A stretch of DNA of 64,000 bases, taken from contig NZ_CP009528.1 of NCBI RefSeq assembly GCF_000970025.1, positions 186,001 through 250,000 of the forward strand, read 5' to 3'. Position numbers and translations under genes: made by a program. This DNA comes from Methanosarcina barkeri MS. Lineage in GTDB: Archaea; Halobacteriota; Methanosarcinia; Methanosarcinales; Methanosarcinaceae. Under the pieces are notes generated by a model, which did no database searches, was not told where the DNA came from, and saw only the letters and a list, made by a program, of their open reading frames with translations. This document shows positions 8,964-64,000 of this stretch, piece by piece. Position 1 is the stretch's first letter. Every line of letters starts with the position of its first letter.

Positions 8964-9150
8964 CCTATAACCCTTGATTAAATGAGAGGCAGTGTCTCAA
9001 ATTTGCTGTAAATTTGAAGTCAAGTTTTGCGTACTATGAAGAAAATTGATCTTCTGATTTGGAATTTTCTACCCAATAACTTCTTGAGATTTGTGATTTT
9101 AAGAAATAATTGGCATACTACCTATTATACTGATCCTGATATCCAGTTTT

Positions 9151-9201
9151 TATCTGTTCCTTAAAATTATCTGTTCCTCAAAATTATTTGTTCTTCAAAA
9201 T
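9151..9201 (-). repeat. Three 17-bp repeats across the end of the MFS gene
   Basis: Units at 9151, 9168 and 9185 (plus strand TATCTGTTCCTTAAAAT and variants). The two right-hand units lie inside the coding sequence and encode its last residues, EEQIILRNR plus the stop. The left-hand unit lies just beyond the stop. Confidence 0.75.
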
Positions 9202-10516: not shown

Positions 10517-10612
10517 CTTTCCTCAGGATTCGTTTTCGGAAACCTATTCCCAGGGTTTTCGGACTCCCTTTTTCTTTTCATATCACCGGTATATTCAGCT
10601 TTCAGATAACAG

Positions 10613-10963: not shown

Positions 10964-11277
10964 AGTTCACCCCCCCGATTCTGCTTCTTTTCTGATCCTT
11001 TATCGGATAATTTATACTGGAAAATAGGAGTTGTAGTTATTTCAGTATTTTTGTCCTTTCTATCCGGGTTAAATCATGGAAAAGTTATTTTTAAGCTGCA
11101 GGACACATTGAATAATTTATGGCAAGTACTTATGTTAAAAAACAAGGAAAGTTTCCTGGGTCTGGATAACTTGGGTTCAAGGTGGGACTAGTCCTGGAAT
11201 CCCGTTTATCGGATTGGCTGTAGAGCAGAATAGTAAAGAGATTCCTAATAAGGGCTCAGTCATTTCTTTTATTTCTT
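10964..11277. other. Intergenic region without supported gene
   Basis: About 314 bases between a leftward gene start and a repeat array. It contains C-rich and AT-rich patches, including the upstream signals of the zinc-ribbon gene (10964-10980). No frame here has plausible codon use or a ribosome-binding site. Confidence 0.4.
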
Positions 11278-11464
11278 TCTTCATTGTTTCTTCATTGTTT
11301 CTTCATTGTTTCTTCATTGTTTCTTCATTGTTTCTTCATTGTTTCTTCATTGTTTCTTCATTGTTTCTTCATTGTTTCTTCATTGTTTCTTCATTGTTTC
11401 TTCATTGTTTCTTCATTGTTTCTTCATTGTTTCTTCATTGTTTCTTCATTGTTTCTTTCATTCA
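11278..11464 (-). repeat. Sixteen-copy 11-bp tandem repeat at a gene 3' end
   Basis: The plus-strand unit is TTCATTGTTTC, repeated about 16 times with almost no variation. On the minus strand the unit AATGAAGAAAC runs out of the stop codon of the gene at 11462-11863 (TGA at 11464-11462, followed by ATGAAAGAAAC). Because 11 is not a multiple of 3, the array is open in several frames and gives false Phe/Ser/Leu-rich ORFs. Confidence 0.9.
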
Positions 11465-44361: not shown

Positions 44362-44520
44362 TTTCAATTGTTTTTCAATTGTTTTTCAATTGTTTTTCAA
44401 TTGTTTTTCAATTGTTTTTCAATTGTTTTTCAATTGTTTTTCAATTGTTTTTCAATTGTTTTTCAATTGTTTTTCAATTGTTTTTCAATTGTTTTTCAAT
44501 TGTTTTTCAATTGTTTTTCA
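44362..44520 (-). repeat. Fourteen-copy 11-bp repeat at the end of the methyltransferase gene
   Basis: The plus-strand unit is TTTTTCAATTG. On the minus strand the unit ATTGAAAAACA starts from the last Asp codon and TGA stop (44520-44518) of the methyltransferase gene. It is almost perfectly homogeneous and lies between the convergent ends of alaS and the methyltransferase. Confidence 0.92.
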
Positions 44521-45555
44521 ATCATTAAAGATAACTTCACAAAGAATTGCAGTCCCGTCTTTTACAAAGAGATGCACGGTTTTATTCCCTTCAAGGCCTT
44601 TTTCAACCTCATTCCGCACTTCCCAGTATTTTTCGGGCTTTACTCCTGCCCTGAGTACAACACTCCCGATATTCTTGCCTTTAAGGAATTTATTGATCTC
44701 TTTTGGTTCAAAGGGGCAGACCTTCAGTACTAGGTAATGATTTTTGATCATGGACTGTTTTATCAGGGCATCCGAGGTCAATAAAAGCCTTTTTTTGTCG
44801 ACTCTGAAAAGCTCAAAACCTCCCATAAGAGGCCCTGCCATCTGCACCATGGATTCCACAAGCTCAGGCAGCAGTCCGGCTGCAACTACCGATGGTTCAG
44901 GCTCGTAGGCGTTAAGTTTCATTTTGTCAGTTTCCTTTACCTGCGGGAGCCCATATTTTGAAACCAGCCCTTCGCCTGCAGGCAGAGCTACAGCCATGCG
45001 GTCATACTGCTTCAGCCCGCCTAAGTAAAGGGTTAGGCGGTTGAGCTGCCCGTCCAGCGAGATGTATTCTTTTTCGCAGTCAAAAGGAATCCTTTCAGGC
45101 GGCATCTGGGGCGGAGCTTCAAAAGCAAAATTTCGGGTTTTTTCGCCGTAAGCAGCCAGTACATTCGGAATGCCAGGCTCAAGGCTTGAGACATGCCTTT
45201 CGCTTTCTTCGGCCGGGCGGAAGGGGTCAGAAAAGATTACGTCAACGGCCGGGATCTGCTCTATGACTTTTGGGTCAAGGGCGTCCCCGCAAATGAATTT
45301 CACGTTGTCAAGCCCGTACATTGCGCAGTTCTGTTTTGCATACTCGATTTTTTTGGGGTCGATTTCCACTGCATACACGAACTCGCACTGCTGGGCAAAA
45401 AAGACGGTTTGCCCTCCTATCCCGCAGCTTATGTCAGCCAGAACTTTACATCTCAAACGCTGCGCCCTGTAGCGGGCAATGGGCTCAGGGGTCGCAAAGC
45501 GCAGGCTTTCCTTATCCCCATGCAGGGGCTTCTCAAATTGTTTTCTCCGTGCCAC
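44518..45555 (-). CDS. SAM-dependent methyltransferase, THUMP-like (RNA-modifying type)
   Basis: The product has 345 residues. A class I Rossmann methyltransferase occupies about 35-130: motif I LADISCGIGGQTVFFAQQC (the usual DxxxGxGGxT loop), the acidic strand VYAVEIDPKKIEYAKQN, CGDALDP, and motif IV-like IFSDPFRP. The C-terminal half (200-345) contains the THUMP-like fold (KNHYLVLKVCPFEPKEINKF, then GSVVLRAGVKPEKYWEVRNE). The closest known activities are RNA guanine-N2 or tRNA methyltransferases. The exact substrate cannot be told. It converges on alaS. Confidence 0.8.
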   Translation of the reverse strand: MARRKQFEKPLHGDKESLRFATPEPIARYRAQRLRCKVLADISCGIGGQTVFFAQQCEFVYAVEIDPKKIEYAKQNCAMYGLDNVKFICGDALDPKVIEQIPAVDVIFSDPFRPAEESERHVSSLEPGIPNVLAAYGEKTRNFAFEAPPQMPPERIPFDCEKEYISLDGQLNRLTLYLGGLKQYDRMAVALPAGEGLVSKYGLPQVKETDKMKLNAYEPEPSVVAAGLLPELVESMVQMAGPLMGGFELFRVDKKRLLLTSDALIKQSMIKNHYLVLKVCPFEPKEINKFLKGKNIGSVVLRAGVKPEKYWEVRNEVEKGLEGNKTVHLFVKDGTAILCEVIFND

Positions 45556-46741: not shown

Positions 46742-48730
46742 TTAAGGTGGGCTGATATTAAATGGATCAGGTAACACTGGGCGTTCTTTGTATTCATTAA
46801 TAGGATTGATCTGAAGATACCTGGTTAAATCAGTGTTAGGTCCATTCCATTCCATCATCTGAAGAAGCATTTTTATCCTATCAACTTTGTTAAGCTGACT
46901 TTCTTCTTCACCGATCTGATCCAATATGTACTTCTCAAAAGTTTGAATTAACTCCTTTTTCGATTTTTCGGGTACTTTATGTACAGCTTCATGCCATGAA
47001 TCCCCATCAAACAACTTGCGATATCTCTCATCCCTTTTAGATTCATAAAGTTTAGGTTCTATCTTAATTGCACCCATCCCAAAGGGTTTTCCCATTCCTA
47101 GTGAATGACGATATTCTTTTCCTTTTTCTCCAGGAAGTGTCAAAGCCCACAGTAATGTACCCAATTCAAAGTCTCTTAAGTTTTCAAAATAGATGCGGAA
47201 TGAAAAAATAACTCCTGATTTTATCGGTTTAATTCTCGTATACTGTGTAGGCGACTTTTCAATATTTCTGTCTAATTCTTTTATATCTTCTAATTTTACT
47301 TCGCCTTTATGCCAATACATCTTATAGCCACGAATCACAGTATCGTCTGGTGAAGGAGTTGCATAGTGAGCTAAATTTACCTTTTGATCAGGATCATGGA
47401 ATTTATGCATATCCTGAACTAGATAATGCTGAAATGTCGTAGGCTTGGGGGATGCAAGGATTTTTGGAGTAACGGTCTCTTCATCAAACCAAATACCTTC
47501 ATCTGCATATTCAACTCTTGCATCCGTAAAAAATACCCTGCCTGCTCTGGAATCTGTTTTTCCATGTATATATCCAAAAATAGCTTCAGCAATGTCTATC
47601 GCATTTTCTGATCTGAGGTATTCCGGTACGAAGCCAATCGGACTGTTGATATTTGTTTTTTGAGGGAATATAGCGGGAACTCTAAAATTTGGGCAATGAC
47701 CAAAGAAGAAAACTTCTCCACCTCTTTCAACATAAAATATTGGAAGCCCTTCGATTAAACAACCTTGGATGTCATTAAAAGGTGGTTCTTTTTGAAAAGG
47801 TGTCAGCCCGGAAACATAATTTTTTATTGCTTGTTCATTAATTTTTAGTTCTTCTGCTTCTTCATTCTTCTCCAAAATAATAACATGACTATTTCGATTA
47901 GATTGTATCTCGTTATTTGTTTCTAACATATTTCCGGAGCATACAAGGAAACCTTTGTACTTTCCATTTCCGGGAGAACCTAAATCCTTAATATAAGTAT
48001 ATTTATTCCCTTTTTTACTTTCTAATATATCTGCATTAAAGCTGATTTCATGGTACTGAGGTTTATATTCATCATCATTAAGTTTTTTAAAACCATTAAT
48101 AGCATTTTCGGGAATATTTTTTTCTTTAATTTTCAAATATGCAGTTTTATCTGGAAATCCAAGTTCTAAAGGTCTTTTAGCGGGCTTTACCCACCACTCG
48201 TTGCTATGTTTTATCAGATATCCTGCATTTACTTTATTACCGGATTTCCCCAGTATATTTTTATAAGGTTCACTTAGCGGGTCATTTTGTGAAGATGCAA
48301 CAGCCCTGTATGTCATCTTTGTATCATCTGTTACCCACTGCATTTTTCCATATCCTACAATCTCTACCAACGATCTAATCATTCCGCGTAAGCTACTACC
48401 GGGAATTACTGGACAATTTTTCTGCTCACGGTAAAAGAAATGGGCACATTCATTTTTCTGATCATGATCTAATTCATAAAATTTTTTATCTCCGTATTTA
48501 CTAAAAAAAGAAGGGGTCATAGGACAGCGGACATACAAGGGAGACTCAGTTTTCATGGTACATTTTATGTAACCAGTATTATTTGTGTATGAATCTTGAT
48601 CTGGTAATTCAGTAACTGTCACCAATTTATCTGGTAAAGGTATAAAATTGTAAGGAGCATATGCCCAAAAAGATTTTTTAGCATTTCTGTCAAAGCGTTT
48701 TTTTGTAGGATTTGAATGTTTTGGTAACAT
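46742..48730 (-). CDS. Type III-D RAMP protein, TIGR03986 family (Cas7 with insertion)
   Basis: This 662-residue RAMP-superfamily protein is a Cas7-like backbone subunit. The RAMP signature PVIPGSSLRGMIRSLVEIV lies near residues 102-120. A long insertion (about 130-400) follows, and the C-terminal glycine-rich loop is LGMGKPFGMGAIKIEP. Conserved blocks around QNDPLSEPYK and FFTDARVEYADEG match the TIGR03986 family, found with Csx10 and Csx19. In III-Dv complexes the corresponding subunit is the 'Cas7 with insertion' near the 3' end of the crRNA. It is the last gene of the operon. Its ATG shares one base with the csx19 stop (TAATG). Confidence 0.88.
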   Translation of the reverse strand: MLPKHSNPTKKRFDRNAKKSFWAYAPYNFIPLPDKLVTVTELPDQDSYTNNTGYIKCTMKTESPLYVRCPMTPSFFSKYGDKKFYELDHDQKNECAHFFYREQKNCPVIPGSSLRGMIRSLVEIVGYGKMQWVTDDTKMTYRAVASSQNDPLSEPYKNILGKSGNKVNAGYLIKHSNEWWVKPAKRPLELGFPDKTAYLKIKEKNIPENAINGFKKLNDDEYKPQYHEISFNADILESKKGNKYTYIKDLGSPGNGKYKGFLVCSGNMLETNNEIQSNRNSHVIILEKNEEAEELKINEQAIKNYVSGLTPFQKEPPFNDIQGCLIEGLPIFYVERGGEVFFFGHCPNFRVPAIFPQKTNINSPIGFVPEYLRSENAIDIAEAIFGYIHGKTDSRAGRVFFTDARVEYADEGIWFDEETVTPKILASPKPTTFQHYLVQDMHKFHDPDQKVNLAHYATPSPDDTVIRGYKMYWHKGEVKLEDIKELDRNIEKSPTQYTRIKPIKSGVIFSFRIYFENLRDFELGTLLWALTLPGEKGKEYRHSLGMGKPFGMGAIKIEPKLYESKRDERYRKLFDGDSWHEAVHKVPEKSKKELIQTFEKYILDQIGEEESQLNKVDRIKMLLQMMEWNGPNTDLTRYLQINPINEYKERPVLPDPFNISPP

Positions 48731-49296
48731 TAAACCACCCCTTTTATAGTATCCGCTCTAATACCTACCAGTCGACTGAATTGTATATAGGCCTGACCAT
48801 CGTCATCGTAATTTATATAATGACGTATCTTAAGCTTCAAGTCCTCTTTTATATCAACTGGGGGAGAATGCCGTAATCCTCCAGATCCATGTTCCCACAG
48901 AAAAAAACCATCATTGCTATTCTCTAATCTGGTACCCCATAAAAGCATAGTCTCATCAAAATATTCTATCTCTTGTCCTTGATTATCAATCACCAAGCGG
49001 GCTTGCCAGCTACAATAATCAGTTTTCCAAATGAATAATTCACCAGTAGTTCCAAATACCCTTGCCATCTGAAGGGTTTTTGCTCTCAGTGCAGGTCCAA
49101 ATAATTTAGATGACAAGTGAATCTTATCATCTCTCAATTCACCCCATATTACTCCATCGTCAGCATGAACTAATAACCACTTGAGATCATAAGCTTTAGC
49201 CTGTTCCTCAAACCATGCCGTTATATTGCCTCCAAAATCAGCAGGAACACTTAGCGGGAGGATTTTATACTTTAGATTCAAGATCTTTGGTTTCAT
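48730..49296 (-). CDS. csx19: Type III-D subunit Csx19 (TIGR03984 family)
   Basis: The product has 188 residues. The conserved core is AYDLKWLLVHADDGVIWGEL, LSSKLFGPALRAKTLQMARV, then FDETMLLWGTRLE, GGLRHSPP and HYINYDDDGQAYIQFSRLVG. These match the TIGR03984/Csx19 family, a small subunit that is restricted to subtype III-D. In III-Dv structures it sits on the Cas7 backbone. It overlaps the gene upstream by 4 nt (ATGA arrangement) and the one downstream by 1 nt, so all three are translationally coupled. Confidence 0.88.
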   Translation of the reverse strand: MKPKILNLKYKILPLSVPADFGGNITAWFEEQAKAYDLKWLLVHADDGVIWGELRDDKIHLSSKLFGPALRAKTLQMARVFGTTGELFIWKTDYCSWQARLVIDNQGQEIEYFDETMLLWGTRLENSNDGFFLWEHGSGGLRHSPPVDIKEDLKLKIRHYINYDDDGQAYIQFSRLVGIRADTIKGVV

Positions 49297-50720
49297 GCTG
49301 CAATACCTCCAATAAAATCACTTACATAATTTTCAAGCCTATCCCTGTCACCTACAATTTCTATCTTTCCATTATTTTTTTTATTGATTTCCCATACATG
49401 TTGTATGTTAAAACTTTCTTTATATGTTAGTTTTGCATTCAGTCCACGCAGACGTCCTCTTCCCACACTTGCTTCACCACCTAATGGTAAATCGCCAGTC
49501 CATAAATCTTTCAGCAAGAGTAGTAAGAGTCCTATTTGAGCATTTTCTGGTTTTTGGATCTGTACTTTAAATTTAACGTTTGTTCCCTTCTGCTCAAAAA
49601 TAGGTTGTTCATCAAAAAGTGCTGTAGGGAGAGAGCTACCGGTGAAACGGTCAATCTTAATACGTTGTTGTACAAGATTCAGAGGATTTGTGATTTCGTT
49701 CTCAGTTGTTATTAGCTGACTTGCAGAAGCTTTATCTGCAGGAGATTTGATTTCTGGACCAAATAATCTGTTTATCATTTCGCTGGCTTTTTCTTCGCTC
49801 CCAATAGTTTTTGTAATACGAAATGCTCTTGCTCTTAATGAACCCGCCAAGCTGGTACCACTTAAAACAGGAATTGACTCTCCGTTTCGGTTTGAATGAA
49901 GATGAACTATATCCGGAGCATCGGTTTTATCATACCCTGACCTAATGATCATGGAACCATCAAGAGAAAAAGTGGCATTCATTGTGAAAAGGTATCTTTT
50001 ATCAATTAGGTTACTTTCATTAATGCCTAGTAAAGTTAAAATGTTCTGACCACGCTTTTCCTCCTTCAGATCCTCATTCAGCCAATTAATTAGCCCTTTA
50101 GGAGTTGTTAAGTTGTAGCGGCAGACATTCCATTCTTTTATCTTACAGCTACCAAACCCTCTTCTCTTACGAAAACCTAAAGATATTTCTCCCTTTTCCA
50201 ATCCTTTTAAAGCAATAGCCAGACCAAGAAGTAGTTTTTCTTTTCTTGTATCTTCTTTCGGGAGCAATAGTTCCATTTCGATAAGGAAACAAGTACCGGC
50301 TTCAATCAGTTCAAAATCAAATTTGTGTTTATCTTTTGCTGTTCGAGTCTTATTATCTATTTTTACTCCGTCTCTCAATTCTACTTTTGGTTTTTCACCC
50401 AATGAATCATTAACAATAAGTAGACTTTGTTCACCTTCATCGTCTTCCTGATTACCGAATAGGTTCATATATAGTGATTTTTTGTCACCTTGTTGTCCGT
50501 AACCATGTTCATATTCCCTCAAATAACTTCGTAAAGCACCGGCTAAAGACGCGCCAGTCAAAAGAGTCTTACCTTCTAATGGATCCACTGCTAATGGGAT
50601 ATCCACCAGTTCATCGTGGTCACCTGCGCCAAAATATGTTGGTGTTTCCAAGATAAGGCTTCCACGGATAATTATTCTGTCTACAATCTCTCGACTTTTC
50701 AACCAATGAGAATTATCCAT
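49293..50720 (-). CDS. Two-domain Cas7 (Cas7-2x-like) of the III-D complex
   Basis: The 475 residues contain two consecutive RAMP/Cas7 units. Unit 1 (about 12-230) has LLTGASLAGALRSYLREYEH and the glycine-rich LGFRKRRGFGSCKI. Unit 2 (about 240-460) has IPVLSGTSLAGSLRARAFRI and LGGEASVGRGRLRG. A tandem fusion of this sort is the Cas7-2x backbone subunit of III-Dv effectors. Each Cas7 unit may cut target RNA at 6-nt spacing, but the catalytic Asp could not be assigned with certainty. It overlaps csx10 by 8 nt and csx19 by 4 nt. Confidence 0.87.
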   Translation of the reverse strand: MDNSHWLKSREIVDRIIIRGSLILETPTYFGAGDHDELVDIPLAVDPLEGKTLLTGASLAGALRSYLREYEHGYGQQGDKKSLYMNLFGNQEDDEGEQSLLIVNDSLGEKPKVELRDGVKIDNKTRTAKDKHKFDFELIEAGTCFLIEMELLLPKEDTRKEKLLLGLAIALKGLEKGEISLGFRKRRGFGSCKIKEWNVCRYNLTTPKGLINWLNEDLKEEKRGQNILTLLGINESNLIDKRYLFTMNATFSLDGSMIIRSGYDKTDAPDIVHLHSNRNGESIPVLSGTSLAGSLRARAFRITKTIGSEEKASEMINRLFGPEIKSPADKASASQLITTENEITNPLNLVQQRIKIDRFTGSSLPTALFDEQPIFEQKGTNVKFKVQIQKPENAQIGLLLLLLKDLWTGDLPLGGEASVGRGRLRGLNAKLTYKESFNIQHVWEINKKNNGKIEIVGDRDRLENYVSDFIGGIAA

Positions 50721-52275
50721 TGTTTACCTCCTTGGATGCTTTGTGAAGAACTGCATCAATTAGACGAGCAGTGTATTCACGAGCTAGATTATCATTTAAC
50801 TCTGGTTTTATATTTCCTAATGAGGGTAAGTTATTTTTATTAACTTGAAGTGCATCCCAAACACTTTGTGGATTTGCTGTAAATTCCTTAATCCACTGTT
50901 CCAGTGATTTTCTTTCAATCTGGGCATTTTGAAACTGATCACTTGCAGTTTTTTTCATTTTATCCAGGTGACCTGTAACTATGGACAAATCATCCTCACT
51001 TAAAGATCGACGAACTATCACGCGCATGCGGGACAACTGAGATTTCTTTGGGATGGATTCTTTTGTTATTTCTAATTTGTTAACTGCCTTGATTAAATCT
51101 CGATCCAGCTTTTCTTTAGTCATCCTGCTAACAATTCTTTTAGCCAAGCACAAGCTATCCGGATCTTTCATTTCGTAAGGTAAAGTAGATTCTTTTAACT
51201 CCCCTTTTTCTGCTTTAATTCCATTTACTTGGTGCCAATTGACAGCAATTCGTCCATACCCTTCTTCTCTTTTTTCTCCAATACCAATAACCTTAAGTGT
51301 TTCTAATCGATCAAGTAATTCTGACCTTTTTTCGTAAACAAATACACTGCCCGCTCGAATGGCTAAAACCTGAGGAAGGGGAAGATTCCAAGTATTATTG
51401 AAACCTCCTCTTACCCGCGTGCTTACAAAGGTTTTTTTAAGGGACTTAGAGTCTGTGCCTAAAATGGAATTGAGGCTTGTGCTATAAGCTCCAGTATTCT
51501 TGTCACGGATAAGAGTATCACTTAAAAGAGTAATTACTACTGTATTGTTTCCTTCGTTGCCAACAGGAGAGTATTCTTCCCAATTCTCAAAACTGTTTAT
51601 GTTATTGATCTTTACATGTCCATAGCCTGCAAGATGTGATTTCCCAAAATTAAAGACTACTTCTTCTGTTAATAAATTTTTAATCTTTTCAAAACATAAT
51701 TCATTCTCAGCTAATATAACACTGGAGAAATCTTGATCAGCTTCCAATGCTTGATAACGAAAAATTGTACTTTCTCCAGCAGTCTCTCTTTGTCTATTCG
51801 CACGAAAGATATGTATTTGGACTTGATTAGAAGGTTGATATAAAATAATTCCTTCTTCCTCATCGATTTCGAACAAATGACAAAAAGGTTCAGAAACTTT
51901 TTTCCAATTTTTTTCAGGATCATACTCTACGTTGTCAGAATAATCCTCTGTGGCAAAGTCATATATTATGTTATCAGGATCGCCTTTTTCTACATGCCAT
52001 GAAAGAGGAGTAGGTAAAGATCGGCTATAATCTTTATTTGAAGGATAAGCATTTAAGAAGCTTACAGCTCCATCAAAAAAAAGCTCTCTAAATTCAGTGT
52101 CTTCCGCATCGATTGAGTACTTCGTTTTTCCTTGGAGATACTTGCCTATCAATGCCCCTCTAATTACACTGCCAGGAATAAATTCAAATCCAATCGCACT
52201 GTTTGGATCCCCTCCACTTATATCATTTACCAATAAGGGTTCTAATAAATGTATATTGAAAGTCAATGCTTTCAC
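50713..52275 (-). CDS. csx10: Csx10: Cas5-like subunit with helical C-terminus
   Basis: The product has 520 residues. The N-terminal RAMP region (1-360) has NIHLLEPLLVNDISGGDPNS, FIPGSVIRGALIGKYL, FGKSHLAGYGHVKI and GEKREEGYGRIAVNW, all characteristic of Csx10, the Cas5-like subunit that caps the crRNA 5' handle. About 370-520 is mostly alpha-helical and charged (RIVSRMTKEKLDRDLIKAVN and following), reminiscent of a fused small subunit (Cas11). In the fused III-Dv form Cas7, Cas5 and Cas11 are one protein. Here the Cas7 part is the separate gene just upstream, with a 4-nt overlap. The Cas11 assignment is inference from helical character and length. Confidence 0.87.
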   Translation of the reverse strand: MKALTFNIHLLEPLLVNDISGGDPNSAIGFEFIPGSVIRGALIGKYLQGKTKYSIDAEDTEFRELFFDGAVSFLNAYPSNKDYSRSLPTPLSWHVEKGDPDNIIYDFATEDYSDNVEYDPEKNWKKVSEPFCHLFEIDEEEGIILYQPSNQVQIHIFRANRQRETAGESTIFRYQALEADQDFSSVILAENELCFEKIKNLLTEEVVFNFGKSHLAGYGHVKINNINSFENWEEYSPVGNEGNNTVVITLLSDTLIRDKNTGAYSTSLNSILGTDSKSLKKTFVSTRVRGGFNNTWNLPLPQVLAIRAGSVFVYEKRSELLDRLETLKVIGIGEKREEGYGRIAVNWHQVNGIKAEKGELKESTLPYEMKDPDSLCLAKRIVSRMTKEKLDRDLIKAVNKLEITKESIPKKSQLSRMRVIVRRSLSEDDLSIVTGHLDKMKKTASDQFQNAQIERKSLEQWIKEFTANPQSVWDALQVNKNNLPSLGNIKPELNDNLAREYTARLIDAVLHKASKEVNNG

Positions 52276-52961
52276 GGCATCACCTTTTCACAAAATATAG
52301 TAAAATAATTTTCAGTAACGTTTATTCCGTTTTCATCACAAAGAACAGCAACAAGTTTACCCCTCCCACGATTACGACCCGTACCAGCTCTCCTGAAAGC
52401 TTTTATGCAAGCTGCTAACAAAGGCAGATCCAAACCAGATGGATCTTTTGTAAACGATAATTTCGCCTCAAATGATGTTTCCCTAAGCACTACCCTCATT
52501 GAACGTAGAGATCCCTTTTCAGGTGCTCCTGATTTTTCATCAATCGAAGTCTGACGACGAATAGAAGTTAGAGAATTCAGTATATCTTCACTACTTAATC
52601 TCATTGAGCTGCGAGATTTTTCGAGTTCGTATGCAACAGATTTTCTCAAATCCACTGGCAAAGTGGCATTACTTATGTGAAGTATAGCTTTATCTGAATC
52701 GCTACTTCCTGGACTTCCAAAAAGATGCTTTGAAGATCTATAGAATTCTTCTTGGAATTCCAAGTCATAATTTTGCTCATTTAAGGAAAAAAGGATATTT
52801 GCACATTCTTCTTCAAGTAAGCCTTTCAGAGTTCTTCCATTCAAAAAAGGTAATCCGTATTTGTCATGCATCACTTCTATATCTACCAGACCCGCTAAAC
52901 CGTCTCCCCTTCCAAAAGTCGAGTCACTTTTTGTAGTAAACTTTAACCAGAATGTCTTCAT
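52272..52961 (-). CDS. Stand-alone Cas7 (Csm3-like) subunit
   Basis: The 229 residues form one RAMP domain of the Csm3/Cas7 group: TFGRGDGLAGLVDIEV, PFLNGRTLKGLLEEEC, a long middle loop (RLSSEDILNSLTSIRRQTSI) and a C-terminal glycine/arginine loop RRAGTGRNRGRGKL. It would bind crRNA in the effector backbone next to Csx10. It overlaps cas10 by 4 nt upstream and csx10 by 4 nt downstream. It most likely corresponds to the N-terminal part of the fused Cas7-5-11 of III-Dv systems. Confidence 0.85.
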   Translation of the reverse strand: MKTFWLKFTTKSDSTFGRGDGLAGLVDIEVMHDKYGLPFLNGRTLKGLLEEECANILFSLNEQNYDLEFQEEFYRSSKHLFGSPGSSDSDKAILHISNATLPVDLRKSVAYELEKSRSSMRLSSEDILNSLTSIRRQTSIDEKSGAPEKGSLRSMRVVLRETSFEAKLSFTKDPSGLDLPLLAACIKAFRRAGTGRNRGRGKLVAVLCDENGINVTENYFTIFCEKVMP

Positions 52962-54631
52962 TTTCTGCCCCCTTCAAGCCAAACAAAAAAATCGAGAGCT
53001 TCAATTGCATCAAAGCAAGTACAAGTATTATCAACCCAGCCCGTTTTGTCAGAGCCTTCGTTGTTTTTTATTTTAGGGAGTGGTTGTTCTTTTGGAAGCG
53101 AATCATTATATATTTTTATGAATTTTTCAACTTCGTGGGGTCCATTACGTAAAGTCTCTCTAAGGCGCATGATTTTGTTATGTTTACCCTCCCATTCTTC
53201 ACCCTTGAATTTTGAAATGATTTCTTCAAAAGTGTTCCAGGAGCGCCAGTCTATTCCAACAGATTCCCCTAGACGTAATGGACGCATGGTTAAATTGCCA
53301 CATATTTCTGATGAGCCTTCTTTCCATTTGATCTTATATTCCCGCTTTCTAATGTTCTCAATACTTTCAATTACTCCACCAGAAGCAAAGTGCCAATCCA
53401 GGGCAGAAGTTTTTCCTTCTTCAGAGGGGAAGGCTTTTTCTATATCATTTATACGTAATTTTGCCGACTCTGCTAAGTTGTTTGCCAATTTTAAAGCCTG
53501 ATAAAATGGATAATGGGTTTTTACAATAGCTATCCCAGCTCTAGCGGAGATCGGATATCCATCGCTCAACTTTTTGTCATCTGATGTCAATTGGCGTAAC
53601 AGTAATTCAGAAAGAGTTAATCCCAATCGACCATCGCAAACAAAAGTTATATCATCGCCACCAAAAACAATTGGTCGAAAAGGTAATTTATTTTGAAACT
53701 CTACTACTCCTCCGATTTTGCATTTTCCATCTTCATCTTTTTGAGATTCAAGCAACCTAATTATGGCAGTTCTGATTGCCTTACTACTTGTTTCTTCAAT
53801 TGAATCCGAAAGAGCACGAATGGAATTTATGTATTCACGGTTGTCTTTCCCATGTCTTTTTGAATATTCGGAAATTCTTTTTCCCATTCCATTTCCATCG
53901 ATATGAACAACAGCAATGTAACTAGATTCATTTTTGGAACCGATTTCATTGAAATCATATACAAAATCTATACCAAGAGCTTTTTCATCCTTATTTAGAA
54001 ATTTGTTGCGAAGTCTGTCATTAGATGAACGAAAAAAATCCAATTTTGTAGATATCTCTCTCGAAACCCTAATTTCTTTTCCATCATCTTTTCTAGTCTC
54101 TGAAGCTGGAAGACCTGTATACTGACAAGAAGCATTCACCCCAATTCCAAGAAGAGGGGATGAGTAAATATGATTGTATTTTTTTTGTGTTATTTTTTTA
54201 TGGAGAGTGTCCCTTACTTTTTTTTCAAGGGTATCTAGGCTATCTTTATCCCATATGAAGTTGTTATGAGCGATAATTAACTGTAAGCCTGGTGCTTTTA
54301 AAAGAACTTTTTTAGTATATTCTCGTGTAAATTTTTTAGCAATATCCAGATTCTTGAATAAAATAACGGTGTTTCCTCCCCCAGAATAAACAAGCTCTGA
54401 ATCCAAATTATCTTTCTCAATCGTTTTACTGTTTAATGTTCTAAAATTTAAATCCAGATTAGTTTTTTCTATATTTGTCTTCCCAATCTTTTTCAATTCC
54501 TCGTAGACCATCTCATGAGTTACAAAATTAACTAGCCCAGAGGCTCCGATGTTCTGTTTCAGGTTATTGCTTCCAAAAATATAGTCCTGAATTCCAACTG
54601 TATCTATAACCGTGACTGTAAATTCTGCCAT
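52958..54631 (-). CDS. cas10: Cas10, HD-less, with GGDD cyclase motif
   Basis: This is the 557-residue large subunit of the type III effector. The first palm-like domain carries VYSGGGNTVILF (81-92). The second carries HIDGNGMGKRI (243-253) and the cyclase motif FGGDDITFV (323-331), so synthesis of cyclic oligoadenylate on target RNA binding is expected. No N-terminal HD nuclease domain is present (the protein begins MAEFTVTVIDTVGIQDYIFG), and the length is at the low end for Cas10. Therefore direct DNA cutting by Cas10 is unlikely. The C-terminal helical part has a Cys pair (CTCF). The CARF gene next to it is the natural recipient of the signal. Confidence 0.92.
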   Translation of the reverse strand: MAEFTVTVIDTVGIQDYIFGSNNLKQNIGASGLVNFVTHEMVYEELKKIGKTNIEKTNLDLNFRTLNSKTIEKDNLDSELVYSGGGNTVILFKNLDIAKKFTREYTKKVLLKAPGLQLIIAHNNFIWDKDSLDTLEKKVRDTLHKKITQKKYNHIYSSPLLGIGVNASCQYTGLPASETRKDDGKEIRVSREISTKLDFFRSSNDRLRNKFLNKDEKALGIDFVYDFNEIGSKNESSYIAVVHIDGNGMGKRISEYSKRHGKDNREYINSIRALSDSIEETSSKAIRTAIIRLLESQKDEDGKCKIGGVVEFQNKLPFRPIVFGGDDITFVCDGRLGLTLSELLLRQLTSDDKKLSDGYPISARAGIAIVKTHYPFYQALKLANNLAESAKLRINDIEKAFPSEEGKTSALDWHFASGGVIESIENIRKREYKIKWKEGSSEICGNLTMRPLRLGESVGIDWRSWNTFEEIISKFKGEEWEGKHNKIMRLRETLRNGPHEVEKFIKIYNDSLPKEQPLPKIKNNEGSDKTGWVDNTCTCFDAIEALDFFVWLEGGRK

Positions 54632-54647: not shown

Positions 54648-55853
54648 TTAAGATGTCAACCATTCTTTTAGATACATCGAAAGATTTGGAATCTGTTCAG
54701 CACCAAACACCCTAAACTTGTTTTCTAAATGCCACTCTTCCTCAATATCTTTTCTAATTCTTTCAGGACTTGCTTTGGGGTTTGTTTCTGAGGCAAAACA
54801 TACCACTCCTATTTTTGCTTCATCCCCACCTAGCTGCTGACCGCGGACATAGGCTTCAAATAACTTTTCCTTTACAATATGTTTTTTGCTTGCAGTTGTA
54901 CAAGAAACTACGAATAATTCATACCCTCTTAAAATAGCCACATCTAACTCAAATTTATCATCGTTGAATTTGGCTCCTAAAATATGATCATGGATTTTAC
55001 ATTCCTCAGCTACTTCTTGAAACGCTAATAGTGCATAGTCTTCCAACCAATTACCATCAAACCATTTAGCCAAATTCTCAACATCTTTTTTCCATTTTTT
55101 TGCTAGCTCCTCTAATGTGCTGCAATCTTTCCAAAAATTAGCCAAATTTTCAAATGGCGGATCAACAGGCAAAATTACATTTTTCAGTTCGCGTTTGTTC
55201 AGTATTTTACCCAAGTCTTTGGACCTTAATTTATCGTCACACCATTTCCTAAATTCTACAAATAGATCATTTGCCAAAACTTCACAAATCTCAGGCATAA
55301 ACACTTCTCTTTTATTATCTATTCTGTACCCATGCAAAGAAAAGAGTTCTTCAATTGATGGTTTGACAGATAGACTTACAGGTATTCTTTTTGACGAAGA
55401 ATCTCTTTTATCTATTACTAATTCCAAGCTACGAGCATCAAGATAACTAAAAACAGAATCTTTATCTGCATCTAAAACGGCCTTATATGCATTTACTGCC
55501 ATAGCCTTTGTTCCACCAGTGTAGTTTAGCCCAAGTTTTTGTTTCCCTTTTGAGTATTCAATTATTTTTGTGTATATATTTCTGGAGTTTGATTCATCTA
55601 CAGGAATTTTAGTCCACCTTTCTGAAGGAATGTTAAGTATTGTGATAAGATTATTTGCGATTTGGTCTGTTTTAGAAGTGTGAATTAAGATAATATGGGA
55701 AGATGGCTTTGCAAGTAAGTGATAAACAACATAATTTGGTAAAGGATTTGTACCGATCAATAGAAACAGGTAGTCACTTCTATAATCAGCAAATTTGTCA
55801 GACTCATTTCTTTTTGCACTTATTATATCCAAAGTTTGAATCCTCCTTTTCAA
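54648..55853 (-). CDS. CARF-domain effector with PD-(D/E)xK-like fold (Card1/Can2-like)
   Basis: The product has 401 residues. An N-terminal CARF domain (about 1-160) has LFLLIGTNPLPNYVVYHLLA, SSHIILIHTSKTDQIANNL and LGLNYTGGTKAMAVNAYKAV, which is expected to bind cyclic tetra- or hexa-adenylate. The C-terminal region (260-400) has the nuclease fold order NWLEDYALLAF, then KFELDVAIL, then ELFVVSCTTASKKHIVKEKL and QLGGDEAKIGVVC. The Asp of ELDV is kept, but the usual ExK (ECKT-like) is replaced by SCTT. It could be an altered active site or an inactive one. It lies in the operon 16 nt before cas10. Alternative label: Csx1-like. Confidence 0.82.
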   Translation of the reverse strand: MKRRIQTLDIISAKRNESDKFADYRSDYLFLLIGTNPLPNYVVYHLLAKPSSHIILIHTSKTDQIANNLITILNIPSERWTKIPVDESNSRNIYTKIIEYSKGKQKLGLNYTGGTKAMAVNAYKAVLDADKDSVFSYLDARSLELVIDKRDSSSKRIPVSLSVKPSIEELFSLHGYRIDNKREVFMPEICEVLANDLFVEFRKWCDDKLRSKDLGKILNKRELKNVILPVDPPFENLANFWKDCSTLEELAKKWKKDVENLAKWFDGNWLEDYALLAFQEVAEECKIHDHILGAKFNDDKFELDVAILRGYELFVVSCTTASKKHIVKEKLFEAYVRGQQLGGDEAKIGVVCFASETNPKASPERIRKDIEEEWHLENKFRVFGAEQIPNLSMYLKEWLTS

Positions 55854-55871: not shown

Positions 55872-56546
55872 TCAGAATTGTATTTTCCTCACAGTCCCAA
55901 ACCCCTTAGCAACCCCCTTTCCCACTCCCATAAAATCCGGAATCAAAAAATTAACTATAAAACCACCTGTAAAAGAAGTAAAATCCATATTTTTGTACTT
56001 TGAACGTCTGACTTCCACATCAACATCGCATTTTATGGTATCAGGAACCGTATATCCAAAAGCTTTTGACATGGAGAGCAAATTTCCTACAAGCGTTTTC
56101 CTGAGGATTTCCTTTTTTTCTTCAGGGTTTCTGGTCTCAAAGAACTTTTCTTCATTTTCTTTATTAAGGGCAAGCCAGGGAGTGAGAAATTCGTAAAAGT
56201 AGAGGTTTTTTGTAAGGCCAAAATCCTGCTTTTTAAGCCTCAGAGACCTTTCAGTGATTTCAAAGTCCTCATGAGGAAGAGTAACCGTATCAAATTTATC
56301 AAATAAACCTTTTAAAATTTCTGCTCCTTCATTTATACCAACCACTAAAGGCATTCTATCAAGAACTTTGTACTGCACAAGAGGGTAACGGTAATAATAT
56401 CTGTCAGTGTTATGGTTGTGGAGCTGATCGTATTCATTGAATTTTGACGCAAAGAAACCACGTATCTGATTTGCGTTCCCTTTGAACTCTTCTGAGCCTT
56501 CAAAGGTCATTTCAAGAGTTTTGAGCTTAATATTTTCTGGAGTCAT
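55872..56546 (-). CDS. cas6: Cas6 crRNA-processing endoribonuclease
   Basis: The product has 224 residues and is a RAMP-fold endonuclease that cuts the CRISPR transcript in each repeat. An N-terminal His-rich segment (YDQLHNHNTDRYYYRYPLVQ) holds the expected catalytic His. The core LVVGINEGAEILKGL and the C-terminal glycine-rich loop GVGKGVAKGFGTVRKI are typical of Cas6. It is the first gene of the cas operon, 18 nt before the CARF gene, with an AT-rich upstream region (56547-56682) that probably holds the operon promoter. It is the only Cas6 in the window, so it may serve both arrays. Confidence 0.93.
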   Translation of the reverse strand: MTPENIKLKTLEMTFEGSEEFKGNANQIRGFFASKFNEYDQLHNHNTDRYYYRYPLVQYKVLDRMPLVVGINEGAEILKGLFDKFDTVTLPHEDFEITERSLRLKKQDFGLTKNLYFYEFLTPWLALNKENEEKFFETRNPEEKKEILRKTLVGNLLSMSKAFGYTVPDTIKCDVDVEVRRSKYKNMDFTSFTGGFIVNFLIPDFMGVGKGVAKGFGTVRKIQF

Positions 56547-56682
56547 GGGAAATACAACGAATTTTTAATAAGTATCATTTTAATTTAATTTGTATTTATT
56601 TTACCCTAAATTACTTGTAACATAAATAAATTTTGATATTTTACGGATAAACTTTTTTACAAAAATAAAACTTTGTTTATAT

Positions 56683-57873
56683 TTAAGTAAACTCTTTTGT
56701 CCTTTTGTTAACACTTTGCTCAATTCTTTCAAGCCCAGCCGCGTAATCCGTATGTTTGTAATAGTTTACCCACGGGTCTAAAACTTTAGAAATATTCTTA
56801 ATAATACTATTATAAGCCCGATTTTTATTTTTATCATCAAAGTTTGATTTTTCTGCGCTTACTATGCTCTCAATGATCTCAATTACCTTCTCAATAGACC
56901 CTTCAGTAGGTATGATTTTTATATTTCTCTCCAATCCATTCTCATCGATAATCTCTTGAAAATAGAAGCCCCCGAACTCAAACCCGTTCACTGCATTCCC
57001 AACATAGGTTTTTTCTTTGTTAAATTCAAGGCCCACTACATCCAGAACAGCCTCAACTCTGTCAGAATTGATCCATTCCTTTGAAAGGATCACAAAGTCA
57101 TCTGCAAAACGAACAAGGTGCTCAACCGAATCCCCTTCAACGTTCTTCAGCCCGATTTCAGCCCACTGGTTATCAAACTGGTCAAGATAAAAGTTTAAAA
57201 GAAGAGGTGAAATTATTCCACCCTGAAGCAGCCCTTTCCCTGAATATTTTCCGGAACTGCTTTCAACTGAACCTTTTTTAAGCCAGTCCTCGATCAGAGA
57301 AAGTATTAGCTCATCTTCAATTCTTGTTTTAAGGACTGTCATGAGCTTATCATGCGGGACGCTGTCAAAACAGTTCTCAATATCTCCCTTCAGGTAATGG
57401 ATGCTCCCGGTTTCAAGCCATTTGTAAACTTCAAGGCTGGCGAGTTTTGCAGACCTGTAAGCACAGTAGCCGTAGGAGCAGTTTTCAAAATCAGCTTCAA
57501 AAATCGGCTCAAGAATGAGTTTTACAGCTCCCTGGACAAGCCGGTCTTTTAAGGTAAGAATTCCAAGCTGCCTTGTCTCACCGTTCTTTTTTGGAATTTC
57601 GACTCTTTTCACTTCGCCAGCAGCGTACTTTTCACTTTTAAGTTCTTTCTTTATCGAGCGGATGAAGTTTTCAACCCCTGAAGCCTCTACCTGCTGGATA
57701 GTCAGAGAATCAAAACCAGTTCCTTTTGTATTTCTGTTCAAATTCTTCCAAGCGGTGTAAAGAACTTCGTCTTTCAAAATTAGCTTTTTAAGTTTTTTAA
57801 ACCGCTTTTCAGGATTCCTTTTCGCTTTATTATACAGTTTTAATTGAATTTCGGCCAGTTTTTGCTTCTGAAT
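56683..57873 (-). CDS. CRISPR-linked reverse transcriptase (group II intron-derived)
   Basis: This is a reverse transcriptase with motifs RT1-RT7: KKNGETRQLGILTLKDRLVQ, HYLKGDIENCFDSVPHDKLM, GLLQGGIISPLLLNFYLDQF, and the catalytic HLVRFADDFVILS (FADD in place of YADD). A truncated thumb/X region follows (VLDPWVNYYKHTDYAAGLER). There is no DNA-binding or endonuclease domain, and no intron domain V is visible downstream. Coding similarity extends upstream of the first TTG (57777): IQKQKLAEIQLKLYNKAKRN and PEKRFKKLKKLI are the RT0 region. The only suitable start is ATT at 57873, 7 nt after GGAGGT (57886-57881); no ATG, GTG or TTG exists between it and the upstream TAA. This gives 396 residues. 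If ATT is not used, the gene starts at TTG 57777 and lacks RT0. Confidence 0.85.
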   Translation of the reverse strand: MQKQKLAEIQLKLYNKAKRNPEKRFKKLKKLILKDEVLYTAWKNLNRNTKGTGFDSLTIQQVEASGVENFIRSIKKELKSEKYAAGEVKRVEIPKKNGETRQLGILTLKDRLVQGAVKLILEPIFEADFENCSYGYCAYRSAKLASLEVYKWLETGSIHYLKGDIENCFDSVPHDKLMTVLKTRIEDELILSLIEDWLKKGSVESSSGKYSGKGLLQGGIISPLLLNFYLDQFDNQWAEIGLKNVEGDSVEHLVRFADDFVILSKEWINSDRVEAVLDVVGLEFNKEKTYVGNAVNGFEFGGFYFQEIIDENGLERNIKIIPTEGSIEKVIEIIESIVSAEKSNFDDKNKNRAYNSIIKNISKVLDPWVNYYKHTDYAAGLERIEQSVNKRTKEFT

Positions 57874-57886
57874 CTCAGATACCTCC
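57874..57886 (-). promoter_or_regulatory. Strong ribosome-binding site before an ATT codon (RT gene)
   Basis: GGAGGT (minus strand, 57886-57881) is the full anti-16S complement. The next in-frame coding position with homology starts with ATT at 57873. A TATA-like GCTAAATATATC lies farther upstream (about 57936-57925). Confidence 0.6.
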
Positions 57887-57942
57887 GTAAATGATTCTTA
57901 ATTTTCAATCATCTACGGAGCTTGATATATTTAGCTGCGAAG

Positions 57943-58032: not shown

Positions 58033-58942
58033 GGTTCAATCCTTTTTTGTGGAGTCTACTTATTGACACTAGACGGGTAAATGATCTTTTCTTTGGAAAA
58101 GAGTTTCAATCCTTGTTTTCGTGGAGTCTACTTCTCGACATTTCAGGGATGACTTAATATGGTATCAGAGTACGGGTTTCAATCCTTGTTTTCATGGAGT
58201 CTACTTCTCGATATAGAAAATATGAATGATTGTATTAGAGATATAATAGTTTCAATCCTTGTTTTCGTGGAGTCTACTTCTCGACGCTTAGAAATAAAGA
58301 GGAGAAATTTGATGAAAACTAGTTTCAATCCTTGTTTTCGTGGAGTCTACTTCTCGACCTAAAAAATAGCAGACAAGTTTGGGAAGAGAAAAGGTTTCAA
58401 TCCTTGTTTTCGTGGAGTTTACTTCTCGACAGAAACTCGAAAACCAACCGACAAAGTCTGAAATTGTTTCAATCCTTGTTTTCGTGGAGTTTACTTCTCG
58501 ACTGGAATACAGTCTTCGGTTCAAGAAAGCAAAGAATAGTTTCAATCCTTGTTTTCGTGGAGTCTACTTCTCGACCCTAAATCTGACCAAAGATTGAAGG
58601 AGGCAACTCTAATGTTTCAATCCTTGTTTTCGTGGAGTTTACTTCTCGACATAAAAATATATGACGGAAAAGGAAAAGAAATAAGTGTTTCAATCCTTGT
58701 TTACGTGGAGTTTACTTCTCGACCAGAGACATGGGCTCTGGTAGATATATCTCCTCAAAGTTTCAATCCTTGTTTTCGTGGAGTCTACTTCTCGACTTTT
58801 AATAATCTTTCAGATGCTTACAAGAATCTGGCGTTTCAATCCTTGTTTTGGTGGCTTCTACTTCTCGACGCGATTGAGAACAAAATATGGTCGTTGCTAA
58901 ATCTGGTTTCAATCCTTGTTTTGGTGGCTTCTACTTCTCGAC
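58033..58942 (-). CRISPR. CRISPR array 1, 13 repeats of 37 bp
   Basis: Repeats begin GTTTCAATCCTTGTTTT and end CTTCTCGAC on the plus strand. Starts: 58033 (degenerate), 58103, 58176, 58249, 58322, 58394, 58466, 58539, 58614, 58687, 58760, 58833 and 58906. Spacers are about 34-38 bp. The reverse complement ends in ATTGAAAC, the usual 8-nt 5' tag of type I/III crRNAs, so transcription is inferred to be leftwards, with the leader at the right. The leftmost repeat is decayed, as expected for the leader-distal end. The two rightmost repeats share GGTGGCTTC where the others have CGTGGAGTC or CGTGGAGTT. The distal end points to the RT gene 160 bp away. Confidence 0.97.
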
Positions 58943-59108
58943 AGGACCGTTTTCCTGATTTTCAACAAATTCTCTGGAAATTTAGAACCTAAAAACAAAC
59001 ATCAAGAAACTTCTTTTTTGTTTGAACTGTCTAATATTTGAAATATACTTGTTTTTGTTTTGGTTAACTAAATTTGGTCGTCGACAAATAGCTAAAGGGT
59101 ATATAAGG
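58943..59108 (-). promoter_or_regulatory. Leader and promoter of CRISPR array 1
   Basis: The AT-rich sequence directly after the last repeat has homopolymer runs and the motif CCTTATATACCC (minus strand, 59108-59097), a TATA element placed to start transcription near 59070, about 130 nt before the first repeat. Confidence 0.6.
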
Positions 59109-59528
59109 ACGGGTACCATTTAAATTTTTGCATTTTCGCTTATAGGATATCAAAATTATTTATTTGATAATGTACATATGTAATCACTTTTAAAAAATAA
59201 TTTACGAAGTTGAATATGAAAGATACATTTTAACTTTTAGTTAAATGATGACAGTCTCACACAATTGTGAATTTCATATCTTTGGTCAAAAGAAAAAAGA
59301 AGGTGTTCTTTTAAAATACTTCAAGCTAGTTATTTTAAATGTTACTTATTGATATTGCTTTTTTGAAAACTAAAAACTCAAATTGAGTAAAAGCGTGATT
59401 CTTCAGGAAAACGGAAGTACAATTTCCAGAATTCGGTTTTTATCCGAACTCTTCGCGAAATAATATTTGTAGATCCATAGGATTAAAAGAATATGGAAGT
59501 TACTCAAATACATAGGAGGTAATTCAAG
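59109..59528. other. Non-coding stretch between leader and cas1 relic
   Basis: About 420 AT-rich bases with no gene. It includes a hairpin (TTCGG 59432-59436 and CCGAA 59444-59448) resembling the one at 57943-57963, and the ribosome-binding site AGGAGGT (59514-59520) of the cas1 relic. Confidence 0.45.
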
Positions 59529-59678
59529 ATTCGGTTAATTGTTGATGAATACGGGACTTATATACATAAGAAGAGCAACCGGTTTATTTTCGTTGATAAG
59601 ACTGAAAAGCTGCTCAAAAAAGGATTTTCGGCAGATAAGGTCTCACAGATTCTTATTTTTTACTCTACAGGTCTTTAA
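59529..59678 (+). pseudogene. cas1: N-terminal fragment of cas1
   Basis: The frame from ATT 59529 to TAA 59676-59678 encodes 49 residues: RLIVDEYGTYIHKKSNRF, then IFVDKTEKLLKKGFSADKVS and QILIFYSTGL. These match the conserved N-terminal beta domain of Cas1 integrase (normally MRLxVDxYG at the start, SADxVxQIxIxxSTG at the end). The catalytic C-terminal domain is absent; the next gene follows after 15 bp on the other strand. The first codon is ATT where ATG would be expected, 8 nt after AGGAGGT. The fragment cannot integrate spacers. It is evidence of a former adaptation module next to the RT and array. Confidence 0.75.
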
Positions 59679-61984: not shown

Positions 61985-64000
61985 GTTTCAATCTTTCTCT
62001 TTTTTATTGGATCTTGCTCGCGAATAGTATATACACAACTTACTTAAAAAGCATTGCTCACGAATCGAGTTTTCTGAGAATGTATGCCCAAAAGCTGTAT
62101 GTTTCAATCCTTGTTTTAATGGATCTTGCTCACGAATACGTGACCTATCATGAGCTTTCCAAGAGGACGCCCTGTGTTTCAATCCTTGTTTTAGTGGATC
62201 TTGCTCACGAATATATCTAGACGGTGACAATGTAGTCCATATAGTTCCGTTTCAATCCTTGTTTTAGTGGATCTTGCTCACGAATCCCTCAAGTCATGGG
62301 AGTTCTTTCTTGACGAGAAGTTTCAATCCTTGTTTTAGTGGATCTTGCTCACGAATATTTTTGAATGTCTCCAACCGTCCCCGGTTCTCTGTGTTTCAAT
62401 CCTTGTTTTAGTGGATCTTGCTCACGAATAAGAGGTAAAAGAGTCAAACTTCTTGAACGTATTGAGTTTCAATCCTTGTTTTAGTGGATCTTGCTCACGA
62501 ATACCTCTTTAAATTCATTCAAATTGTATCCACAATTTTGTTTCAATCCTTGTTTTAGTGGATCTTGCTCACGAATTCGGAGAAGCTGCTGGTCCAGCAT
62601 TATCAATTATTTCGTTTCAATCCTTGTTTTAGTGGATCTTGCTCACGAATATATCTGTGTATTACAATAGGCTGCAAATACTACACTGTTTCAATCCTTG
62701 TTTTAGTGGATCTTGCTCACGAATATTGGAAAGTGTGTTGAATGTGAAAAGGTGGGAAGTTTCAATCCTTGTTTTAGTGGATCTTGCTCACGAATGAAAT
62801 TCCTATCCCCCAGAACGCTTACTACAGCAATGTTTCAATCCTTGTTTTAGTGGATCTTGCTCACGAATATTTTTGGACAAGGTGAATATATGAAGGCAAC
62901 CTTGTTTCAATCCTTGTTTTAGTGGATCTTGCTCACGAATCTCTTTTTTCTCTCCGACCCATTTCTCGGTTGTTAAAAAGTTTCAATCCTTGTTTTAGTG
63001 GATCTTGCTCACGAATCAGATAGAAAGCATGGAATCAGAGACAAGGAAGTTGTTTCAATCCTTGTTTTAGTGGATCTTGCTCACGAATTCAAGCTTTTTT
63101 GTTTCATCTGTCAGGAGTTTGTTAGTTTCAATCCTTGTTTTAGTGGATCTTGCTCACGAATAAATGAACTGACATATTGGGGATGTATAGACCTAAACCA
63201 GTTTCAATCCTTGTTTTAGTGGATCTTGCTCACGAATAATAAGATGAAATAGGAGATATGAGAAAATGAGGTTTCAATCCTTGTTTTAGTGGATCTTGCT
63301 CACGAATTCATTGTTTTAATCTCCTTTCAATCATCCAATTATGTTTCAATCCTTGTTTTAGTGGATCTTGCTCACGAATATGAACCAGAACAACGGATGG
63401 AATATACATTATCTTGTTTCAATCCTTGTTTTAGTGGATCTTGCTCACGAATAATTGATAATGAAGTCGAAAACATGGTTGACCTTCCGTTTCAATCCTT
63501 GTTTTAGTGGATCTTGCTCACGAATGTATGGAAAATGTCACAAATATGTAAAAAAACACCAATGTTTCAATCCTTGTTTTAGTGGATCTTGCTCACGAAT
63601 ATATGTTAATAAGCGACTTAACAACAGAGGAGATGATGTTTCAATCCTTGTTTTAGTGGATCTTGCTCACGAATTTCTATAAGCGTTCACTTCTTGGAGA
63701 AGACGGGTATAGTTTCAATCCTTGTTTTAGTGGATCTTGCTCACGAATATGTCATTTGAAAGTTCCTTTCTTATTTTATTTTATAGTTTCAATCCTTGTT
63801 TTAGTGGATCTTGCTCACGAATTTTTGGATCATTTTGGGATGCAGATCAGTGGTTTTCGTTTCAATCCTTGTTTTAGTGGATCTTGCTCACGAATCCCTG
63901 AGATAGTCACACCTTTGATATCTAGACTAGGTTTCAATCCTTGTTTTAGTGGATCTTGCTCACGAATTTCGTCGGGGTCAAATCTTATACATCCCTGTAG
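61985..64000 (-). CRISPR. CRISPR array 2, 28 repeat units visible, runs off the right edge
   Basis: The 37-bp repeats begin GTTTCAATCCTTGTTTT and end TTGCTCACGAAT. The first two units (61985-62025 and about 62029-62065) are decayed, the next (62101) has one change (AATGG), and 25 further repeats from 62176 to 63931 are uniform, with spacers of about 34-39 bp. The last visible spacer is cut by the window end. As in array 1, the reverse complement ends in ATTGAAAC and decay is at the left, so the leader lies beyond 64000 and transcription is leftwards. The repeat shares its first 17 bases with array 1, but its 3' half differs. No cas gene of another subtype is seen next to it here. Confidence 0.97.

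What the first reader, a model, noticed from the sequence alone, without database searches (positions are those of the whole stretch)
56683..57873. Stand-alone reverse transcriptase beside a III-D locus
A group II intron-derived RT with FADD active site, no ribozyme domain V found around it and no Cas1 or Cas6 fusion lies between cas6 and the distal end of array 1, in operon direction. RTs in CRISPR loci normally act with Cas1 in spacer capture from RNA. Here the only cas1 is a 49-codon relic, so the RT has either lost its partner, works with Cas1 elsewhere, or does another job.
Basis: partly seen in the sequence, partly recalled or inferred. Interest (0 to 1): 0.75.

Follow-up and report, generated by a model that had tools for sequence, protein, structure and literature searches.

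The report
Orphaned CRISPR reverse transcriptase in Methanosarcina
A methanogen carries a reverse transcriptase gene tamed from a mobile intron and wired into a CRISPR immune locus; relatives show it normally travels with a spacer-inserting enzyme, Cas1, which this strain has recently lost, so here the gene is probably stranded.

Summary
In detail: window 56683-57873(-) is an intact 396-aa group II-intron-type RT with an FADD core, no ribozyme and no Cas1/Cas6 fusion, between cas6b and the distal end of array 1 of a III-D locus. It is a known kind: RT-CRISPR clade 1 (Toro 2017), branch 11 (Silas 2017). (2) Here that Cas1 is a 49-codon relic, recently lost; the intact cas1 left belongs to a distant I-B locus with other repeats and leader. 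The RT is probably orphaned; Cys137 replaces an otherwise invariant Arg/Lys. (3) RT and linked cas1 have no ATG/GTG/TTG start; both appear to start at AUU/AUC/AUA behind a conserved Shine-Dalgarno. (4) Array 1 spacers look antisense to mRNA, but RT-less type III arrays show the same bias, so this is no evidence of RNA capture. The tree separates the clade from RT-Cas1, but the AU test is not decisive (p 0.07).

The parts
56683..57873 (-). Stand-alone group II-intron-derived RT (396 aa), start codon ATT; FADD core, truncated X/thumb domain, no DNA-binding or endonuclease domain
57882..57886 (-). GGAGG Shine-Dalgarno of the RT, 8 nt before the ATT; conserved in four sister species whose start codon is ATC, ATC, ATA or ATT
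55872..56546 (-). cas6b
   Evidence: Pfam Cas6b_N and Cas6b_C
54648..55853 (-). Card1-like CARF-PD(D/E)XK effector
52958..54631 (-). Cas10d with GGDD motif
   Evidence: PADLOC Cas10d 8e-154; motif read
46742..52961 (-). III-D effector RAMP genes (Cas7-like, Csx10, Cas7-like, Csx19, TIGR03986 RAMP)
58033..58942 (-). CRISPR array 1: 13 repeats, 12 spacers; repeat family distinct from the I-B repeats; leader-distal end faces the RT
58943..59143 (-). Leader of array 1: 73% identical to the RT-array leader of G006, 42-45% to this genome's I-B leaders
59529..59678 (+). Relic of the RT-linked cas1 (49 codons, ATT start with GGAGG at 59515-59519); first 43 codons without amino-acid change against G006 and G023
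62101..63967 (-). CRISPR array 2 (I-B repeat family), runs past the window's end

Best explanation
The gene is a domesticated group II-intron reverse transcriptase of the methanosarcinal RT-CRISPR clade (clade 1 / branch 11). In the clade it belongs to an adaptation-and-processing module (cas6b, RT, own array with its own repeat and leader, cas1, cas2, often a CARF-HTH regulator) that pairs with different type III effectors. Shown: anatomy, linkage, clade, missing ribozyme, effector swapping. Strongly indicated by comparison: the non-AUG start. Inferred: the RT copies captured RNA into cDNA, which Cas1-Cas2 integrates at the leader end of array 1, as RT-Cas1 does. In this strain cas1-cas2 was deleted recently, leaving a 49-codon relic, so the array is probably frozen and the RT orphaned and at the start of decay.
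For: Twelve CRISPR-linked RTs form one clade, 100/98. An RT-type cas1 (>=48% identity to that of G006) occurs in 9 of 186 genomes of the order; 8 of them also carry this RT, seven in the same locus and G176 about 13 kb away on the same contig. Effectors beside the unit differ: III-D here, G006 and G028; III-B G011; III-C G030. Array repeats and leaders of RT loci form a family of their own. None of eight genomes with a broken RT has that cas1, against 8 of 12 with an intact RT (Fisher p 0.005; not corrected for kinship). The relic has 0 nonsynonymous and 13 synonymous differences from G006 over 43 codons, hence a recent loss. RT Cys137 stands where all 36 other RTs have Arg or Lys. RT and linked cas1 share the unusual AUU-type start.
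Against: G030 and G024 also have an intact RT without that cas1, and RT dN/dS between G000 and G030 is 0.155, close to pairs of lineages that keep cas1 (0.07-0.14). With kinship taken into account only 2 independent pairs support the RT-Cas1 link, none oppose it, and the sign test cannot reach significance. RNA capture by this clade was not found assayed in the papers read, and the spacer strand bias is not RT-specific.
Confidence: 0.62

Rival explanations
1. The RT works in trans with the Cas1-Cas2 of the I-B locus at 3.48 Mb, so adaptation into array 1 or the I-B arrays still uses RNA.
For: An intact I-B cas1-cas2-cas4 exists in the genome; in G170 this RT lies between an I-B-type cas1-cas2 and a III-C effector, beside an array with an I-B-like repeat; RT dN/dS is low although local cas1 is gone.
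Against: Array 1's repeat (5' half) and leader differ from the I-B ones, 42-45% leader identity. The I-B spacers lack the strong strand bias of array 1. The I-B Cas1 is only 38% identical to the lost one.
Confidence: 0.17
2. The RT has a Cas1-independent job, such as making cDNA from crRNA or target RNA as part of defence.
For: RT intact without the linked cas1 in G000, G030 and G024, always close to cas6b and an array; dN/dS 0.155 between G000 and G030.
Against: Truncated or broken RTs in eight genomes, most of them with cas6b and a type III effector still beside the fragment, suggest that the RT is dispensable for interference. No match to the curated DRT or retron models near their cut-offs. 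The G000 copy has lost an otherwise invariant Arg/Lys.
Confidence: 0.14
3. It is an ordinary mobile group II intron or a remnant of one that happens to sit in the CRISPR locus.
For: TIGR04416 score 286 bits, near its cut-off of 300; nested among intron RTs.
Against: No domain V or D1-D4 around it or around six relatives checked, while the control introns score; one clade kept in CRISPR loci of several genera; no endonuclease domain.
Confidence: 0.03

Closest known systems
RT-CRISPR clade 1 (Toro et al. 2017, PMC5541045) = branch 11 (Silas et al. 2017 mBio, PMC5513706)
   Same: Methanosarcinaceae, group II-type RT without intron structure, unfused, next to cas6, beside arrays, with III-A/D or III-B/C effectors
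   Different: Silas reports no cas1 in the locus; here relatives carry cas1-cas2-CARF across the array and this strain carries its relic. Non-AUG starts and broken copies were not mentioned in the passages read
RT-Cas1 and Cas6-RT-Cas1 fusions (Marinomonas MMB-1, Thiomicrospira 7KFT)
   Same: Group II-derived RT tied to Cas1-Cas2 and a type III effector
   Different: Not fused; separate branch of the tree (AU p 0.07, so not formally excluded); independent recruitment according to Silas and Toro
Group II intron RT/maturase (LtrA, GsI-IIC, Roseburia)
   Same: RT domain; best PDB sequence matches
   Different: No ribozyme, truncated X domain, no D/En domains

Membership tests
RT-CRISPR clade 1 / branch 11 | Group II-intron-like RT domain in a methanosarcinal genome | tested here: met
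   same-genus loci include M. spelaei and Methanosarcina sp. STD2_179
RT-CRISPR clade 1 / branch 11 | RT gene separate from Cas1, next to cas6 and a CRISPR array of a type III locus | tested here: met
RT-CRISPR clade 1 / branch 11 | No recognisable group II intron RNA | tested here: met
   positive controls
RT-CRISPR clade 1 / branch 11 | Monophyly with the published clade members | tested here: inconclusive
   One clade of 12 CRISPR-linked RTs, 100/98; the published accession sequences themselves were not in the tree
RT-Cas1 fusions | Cas1 domain fused to the RT | tested here: not met
   The ORF ends 4 residues after the matched part of the X domain; no Cas1 domain
RT-Cas1 fusions | Phylogenetic union with RT-Cas1 | tested here: inconclusive
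   Best tree separates them; AU test of one joint clade p 0.07
RT-Cas1 fusions | Spacer acquisition from RNA | not testable with these tools
   Needs an acquisition assay; spacer strand bias is not RT-specific
Mobile group II intron | Ribozyme domains flanking the ORF | tested here: not met
Mobile group II intron | Complete maturase X domain with or without D/En | tested here: not met
   GIIM positions 12-59 of 80 only, below cut-off; protein ends at 396 aa
Defence RTs (DRT/UG, retrons) | Match to the curated family model at its cut-off | tested here: not met
   retron 45 of 235 bits, Drt3a 43 of 200, Drt2 26 of 390

The most novel reading that the evidence does not exclude
The two key enzymes of this adaptation module, the RT and its Cas1, are both translated from AUU/AUC/AUA initiator codons behind Shine-Dalgarno sequences, conserved across five species (RT) and three species plus the relic (Cas1), while cas2 and cas6 of the module use AUG. 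This would be a shared translational brake on spacer acquisition, and it would explain why standard annotation truncates these genes.
Probability: 0.55. Interest if true: 0.6.

Novelty: new member of a known kind. Interest (0 to 1): 0.45.

Why it matters
It turns a puzzling case (an RT in a CRISPR locus without Cas1) into a recent loss: the partner is known from relatives and its relic lies 1.7 kb away. That gives a matched set of strains (RT with Cas1, RT without Cas1, RT broken) in which the function of the archaeal CRISPR RTs could be tested. The paired AUU-type starts suggest a regulatory link and a reason why gene finders may miss or truncate these genes. The spacer control warns that antisense bias is a type III trait and must not be read as proof of RNA-derived spacers.

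Tried and rejected
(1) Spacer strand bias as proof of RNA capture: 266 RT-linked spacers are 223 pyrimidine-rich against 32 purine-rich in crRNA sense, I-B spacers 320/194 (p 4e-16), but RT-less type III arrays give 49/11 and the same mean (0.195 against 0.190, p 0.60); rejected as RT-specific evidence. (2) Protospacers: none in the phage collection (array 1 spacers and part of G030's), none for four array 1 spacer cores in IMG/VR; only two weak partial hits in 31 Methanosarcina genomes. (3) Relaxed selection: whole-gene dN/dS (0.155) does not separate G000/G030 from cas1-bearing lineages, and the two cas1 losses look independent, so it cannot date the RT's release. (4) Fisher test of RT integrity against cas1 (p 0.005) loses force with kinship: two independent pairs only; it also counts G013 and G019, whose fragments are weak or cut by a contig end. 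(5) Ribozyme search in the window at E<=5: nothing. (7) No structure prediction was made: it would not separate the explanations.

Full report
Observation. The frame 56683-57897(-) is open for 404 codons. The protein has RVT_1 (6e-29), a partial maturase X domain (GIIM positions 12-59 of 80) and 286 bits to the group II RT/maturase model, cut-off 300. Its catalytic motif is FADD. Defence-RT and retron models score far below their cut-offs. No group II RNA domain lies within 40-64 kb at E<=5. The same kind of search finds D1-D4 and/or domain V in true introns of this genome (L001, L002), in an intron inserted in a relative's locus (L045), in a Cloacimonadota genome (L061) and on bacterial plasmids (L103-L105), but nothing at this RT (L003) or in six loci that carry relatives of it (L040, L042, L044, L063, L064, L066). 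The locus order on the minus strand is array 1, RT, cas6b, Card1-like CARF nuclease, Cas10d, III-D RAMPs.

Clade. In a 37-row tree, twelve CRISPR-linked RTs from the order form one clade (100/98) that lies among group II intron RTs, apart from four cyanobacterial RT-Cas1 proteins and the Thiomicrospira Cas6-RT-Cas1. A joint clade with RT-Cas1 costs 8.1 log-likelihood units, AU p 0.07, so it is disfavoured but not excluded. Silas et al. 2017 (PMC5513706) describe this class: branch 11, mostly Methanosarcina, RT next to cas6, no cas1 in the locus, independent recruitment. Toro et al. 2017 (PMC5541045) call it RT-CRISPR clade 1 and find no intron structure. The find is therefore a new member of a known kind.

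What relatives add. In G006, G011 and G023 (same genus) an intact cas1, cas2 and CARF-HTH gene lie beyond the array, divergent from the RT; G007, G110, G184 and G082 also carry them in the locus, and G176 has such a cas1 about 13 kb away on the same contig. Beside the unit of cas6b, RT and array stand different effectors: III-D (window, G006, G028), III-B (G011), III-C (G030). RT-locus arrays share a repeat family and a leader distinct from the I-B ones. The RT-type Cas1 occurs in 9 of 186 genomes; 8 of these have this RT, and the ninth (G042) has a cas1 with two stops and no RT match at E<=1e-50. Eight genomes hold broken RTs (G004, G008, G009, G013, G015, G019, G025, G028; G013 and G019 are weak or contig-limited cases) and none has that Cas1; in several an I-B array abuts the RT fragment, as if one deletion had taken array, cas1-cas2 and the RT's first half. 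The Fisher p is 0.005, but only two independent pairs remain after kinship, so the link is suggestive.

This strain. The relic at 59529-59678(+) matches the first 44 residues of that Cas1; 43 codons show 13 synonymous and no nonsynonymous differences from G006, so the loss is recent. No relic of cas2 or of the CARF gene is left in the window, and G030 lacks all three at its locus. The genome keeps an intact I-B cas1-cas2-cas4 3.2 Mb away, with other repeats and leaders. RT residue 137 is Cys where 34 of 36 others have Arg and two Lys, and residue 301 is Gly where the others have Leu or Val; with an otherwise intact frame this fits early decay but does not prove it. Overall dN/dS (0.155 against G030) is not clearly raised.

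Start codons. The RTs of G000, G030, G011, G006 and G023 have no ATG, GTG or TTG at the expected start; eight nt behind a GGAGG present in all five stands ATT, ATC, ATC, ATA or ATT. The linked cas1 starts at ATT in G011, G006, G023 and the relic, with a stop codon directly before it in G011 and G006; G007, G110 and G082 have ATG. The stretches before any conventional start are under strong purifying selection: cas1 codons 2-25 have 0 nonsynonymous and 5-7 synonymous differences per pair; RT codons 2-33 have dN/dS 0.01-0.18 where it can be computed. The simplest reading is initiation at AUU/AUC/AUA. Two literature searches found no report of this for cas1 or for archaea (a limited library).

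Spacers. RT-linked arrays are pyrimidine-rich in crRNA sense (223/32, mean +0.19; array 1 11/1), as expected for antisense to the purine-rich mRNAs (window genes -0.11); I-B arrays are nearly neutral. RT-less type III arrays of the order show the same (49/11, +0.195), so this is a mark of RNA-targeting type III arrays. In Marinomonas, the III-B system with RT-Cas1 acquires spacers in either orientation and the observed strand bias depends on interference (PMC5576922). No convincing protospacers were found.

Verdict. A known class with a clearer anatomy: an adaptation-module RT whose Cas1 partner has recently been lost here. RNA capture remains inferred.

Noticed in passing
L045 (G007) 8137-11160, minus strand: The CRISPR RT gene of this relative is interrupted by a complete group II intron (D1-D4 at 10214-10331, domain V at 8529-8604, own RT ORF): an intron-derived host gene invaded by an intron.
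   Followed up: partly
window 58033-58942; L041, L042, L044, L063, L066, L067, L181, L192: Type III arrays of Methanosarcinales, with or without RT, hold spacers strongly pyrimidine-rich in crRNA sense (antisense-like), I-B arrays do not; could serve as a composition test of which effector an array serves.
   Followed up: yes
L046 ~10393, L047 ~9414-9471, L050 ~9612-9669: In RT-broken strains an I-B array directly abuts the RT fragment, suggesting deletions by recombination that removed the RT array, the cas1-cas2 side and the RT 5' half.
   Followed up: partly
window 55872-57873 against L040: cas6b dS to G030 is 0.095 but RT dS is 0.33: the two neighbouring genes have different histories (recombination near the cas6b-RT border).
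   Followed up: no
L076 (G042): RT-type cas1 with two internal stops in a genome where no RT of this clade was found: the converse loss.
   Followed up: no
window 44362-44522 and 11276-11462: Nearly perfect 11-bp tandem repeats (TTTCAATTGTT x 14.6; TTTCTTCATTG x 16.9).
   Followed up: no
G000:C2:979096-979437 (L006): Second, partial Cas1-family match (35.6 bits) within a 308-aa frame, away from the CRISPR loci seen here; possibly a solo or casposon-type Cas1.
   Followed up: no
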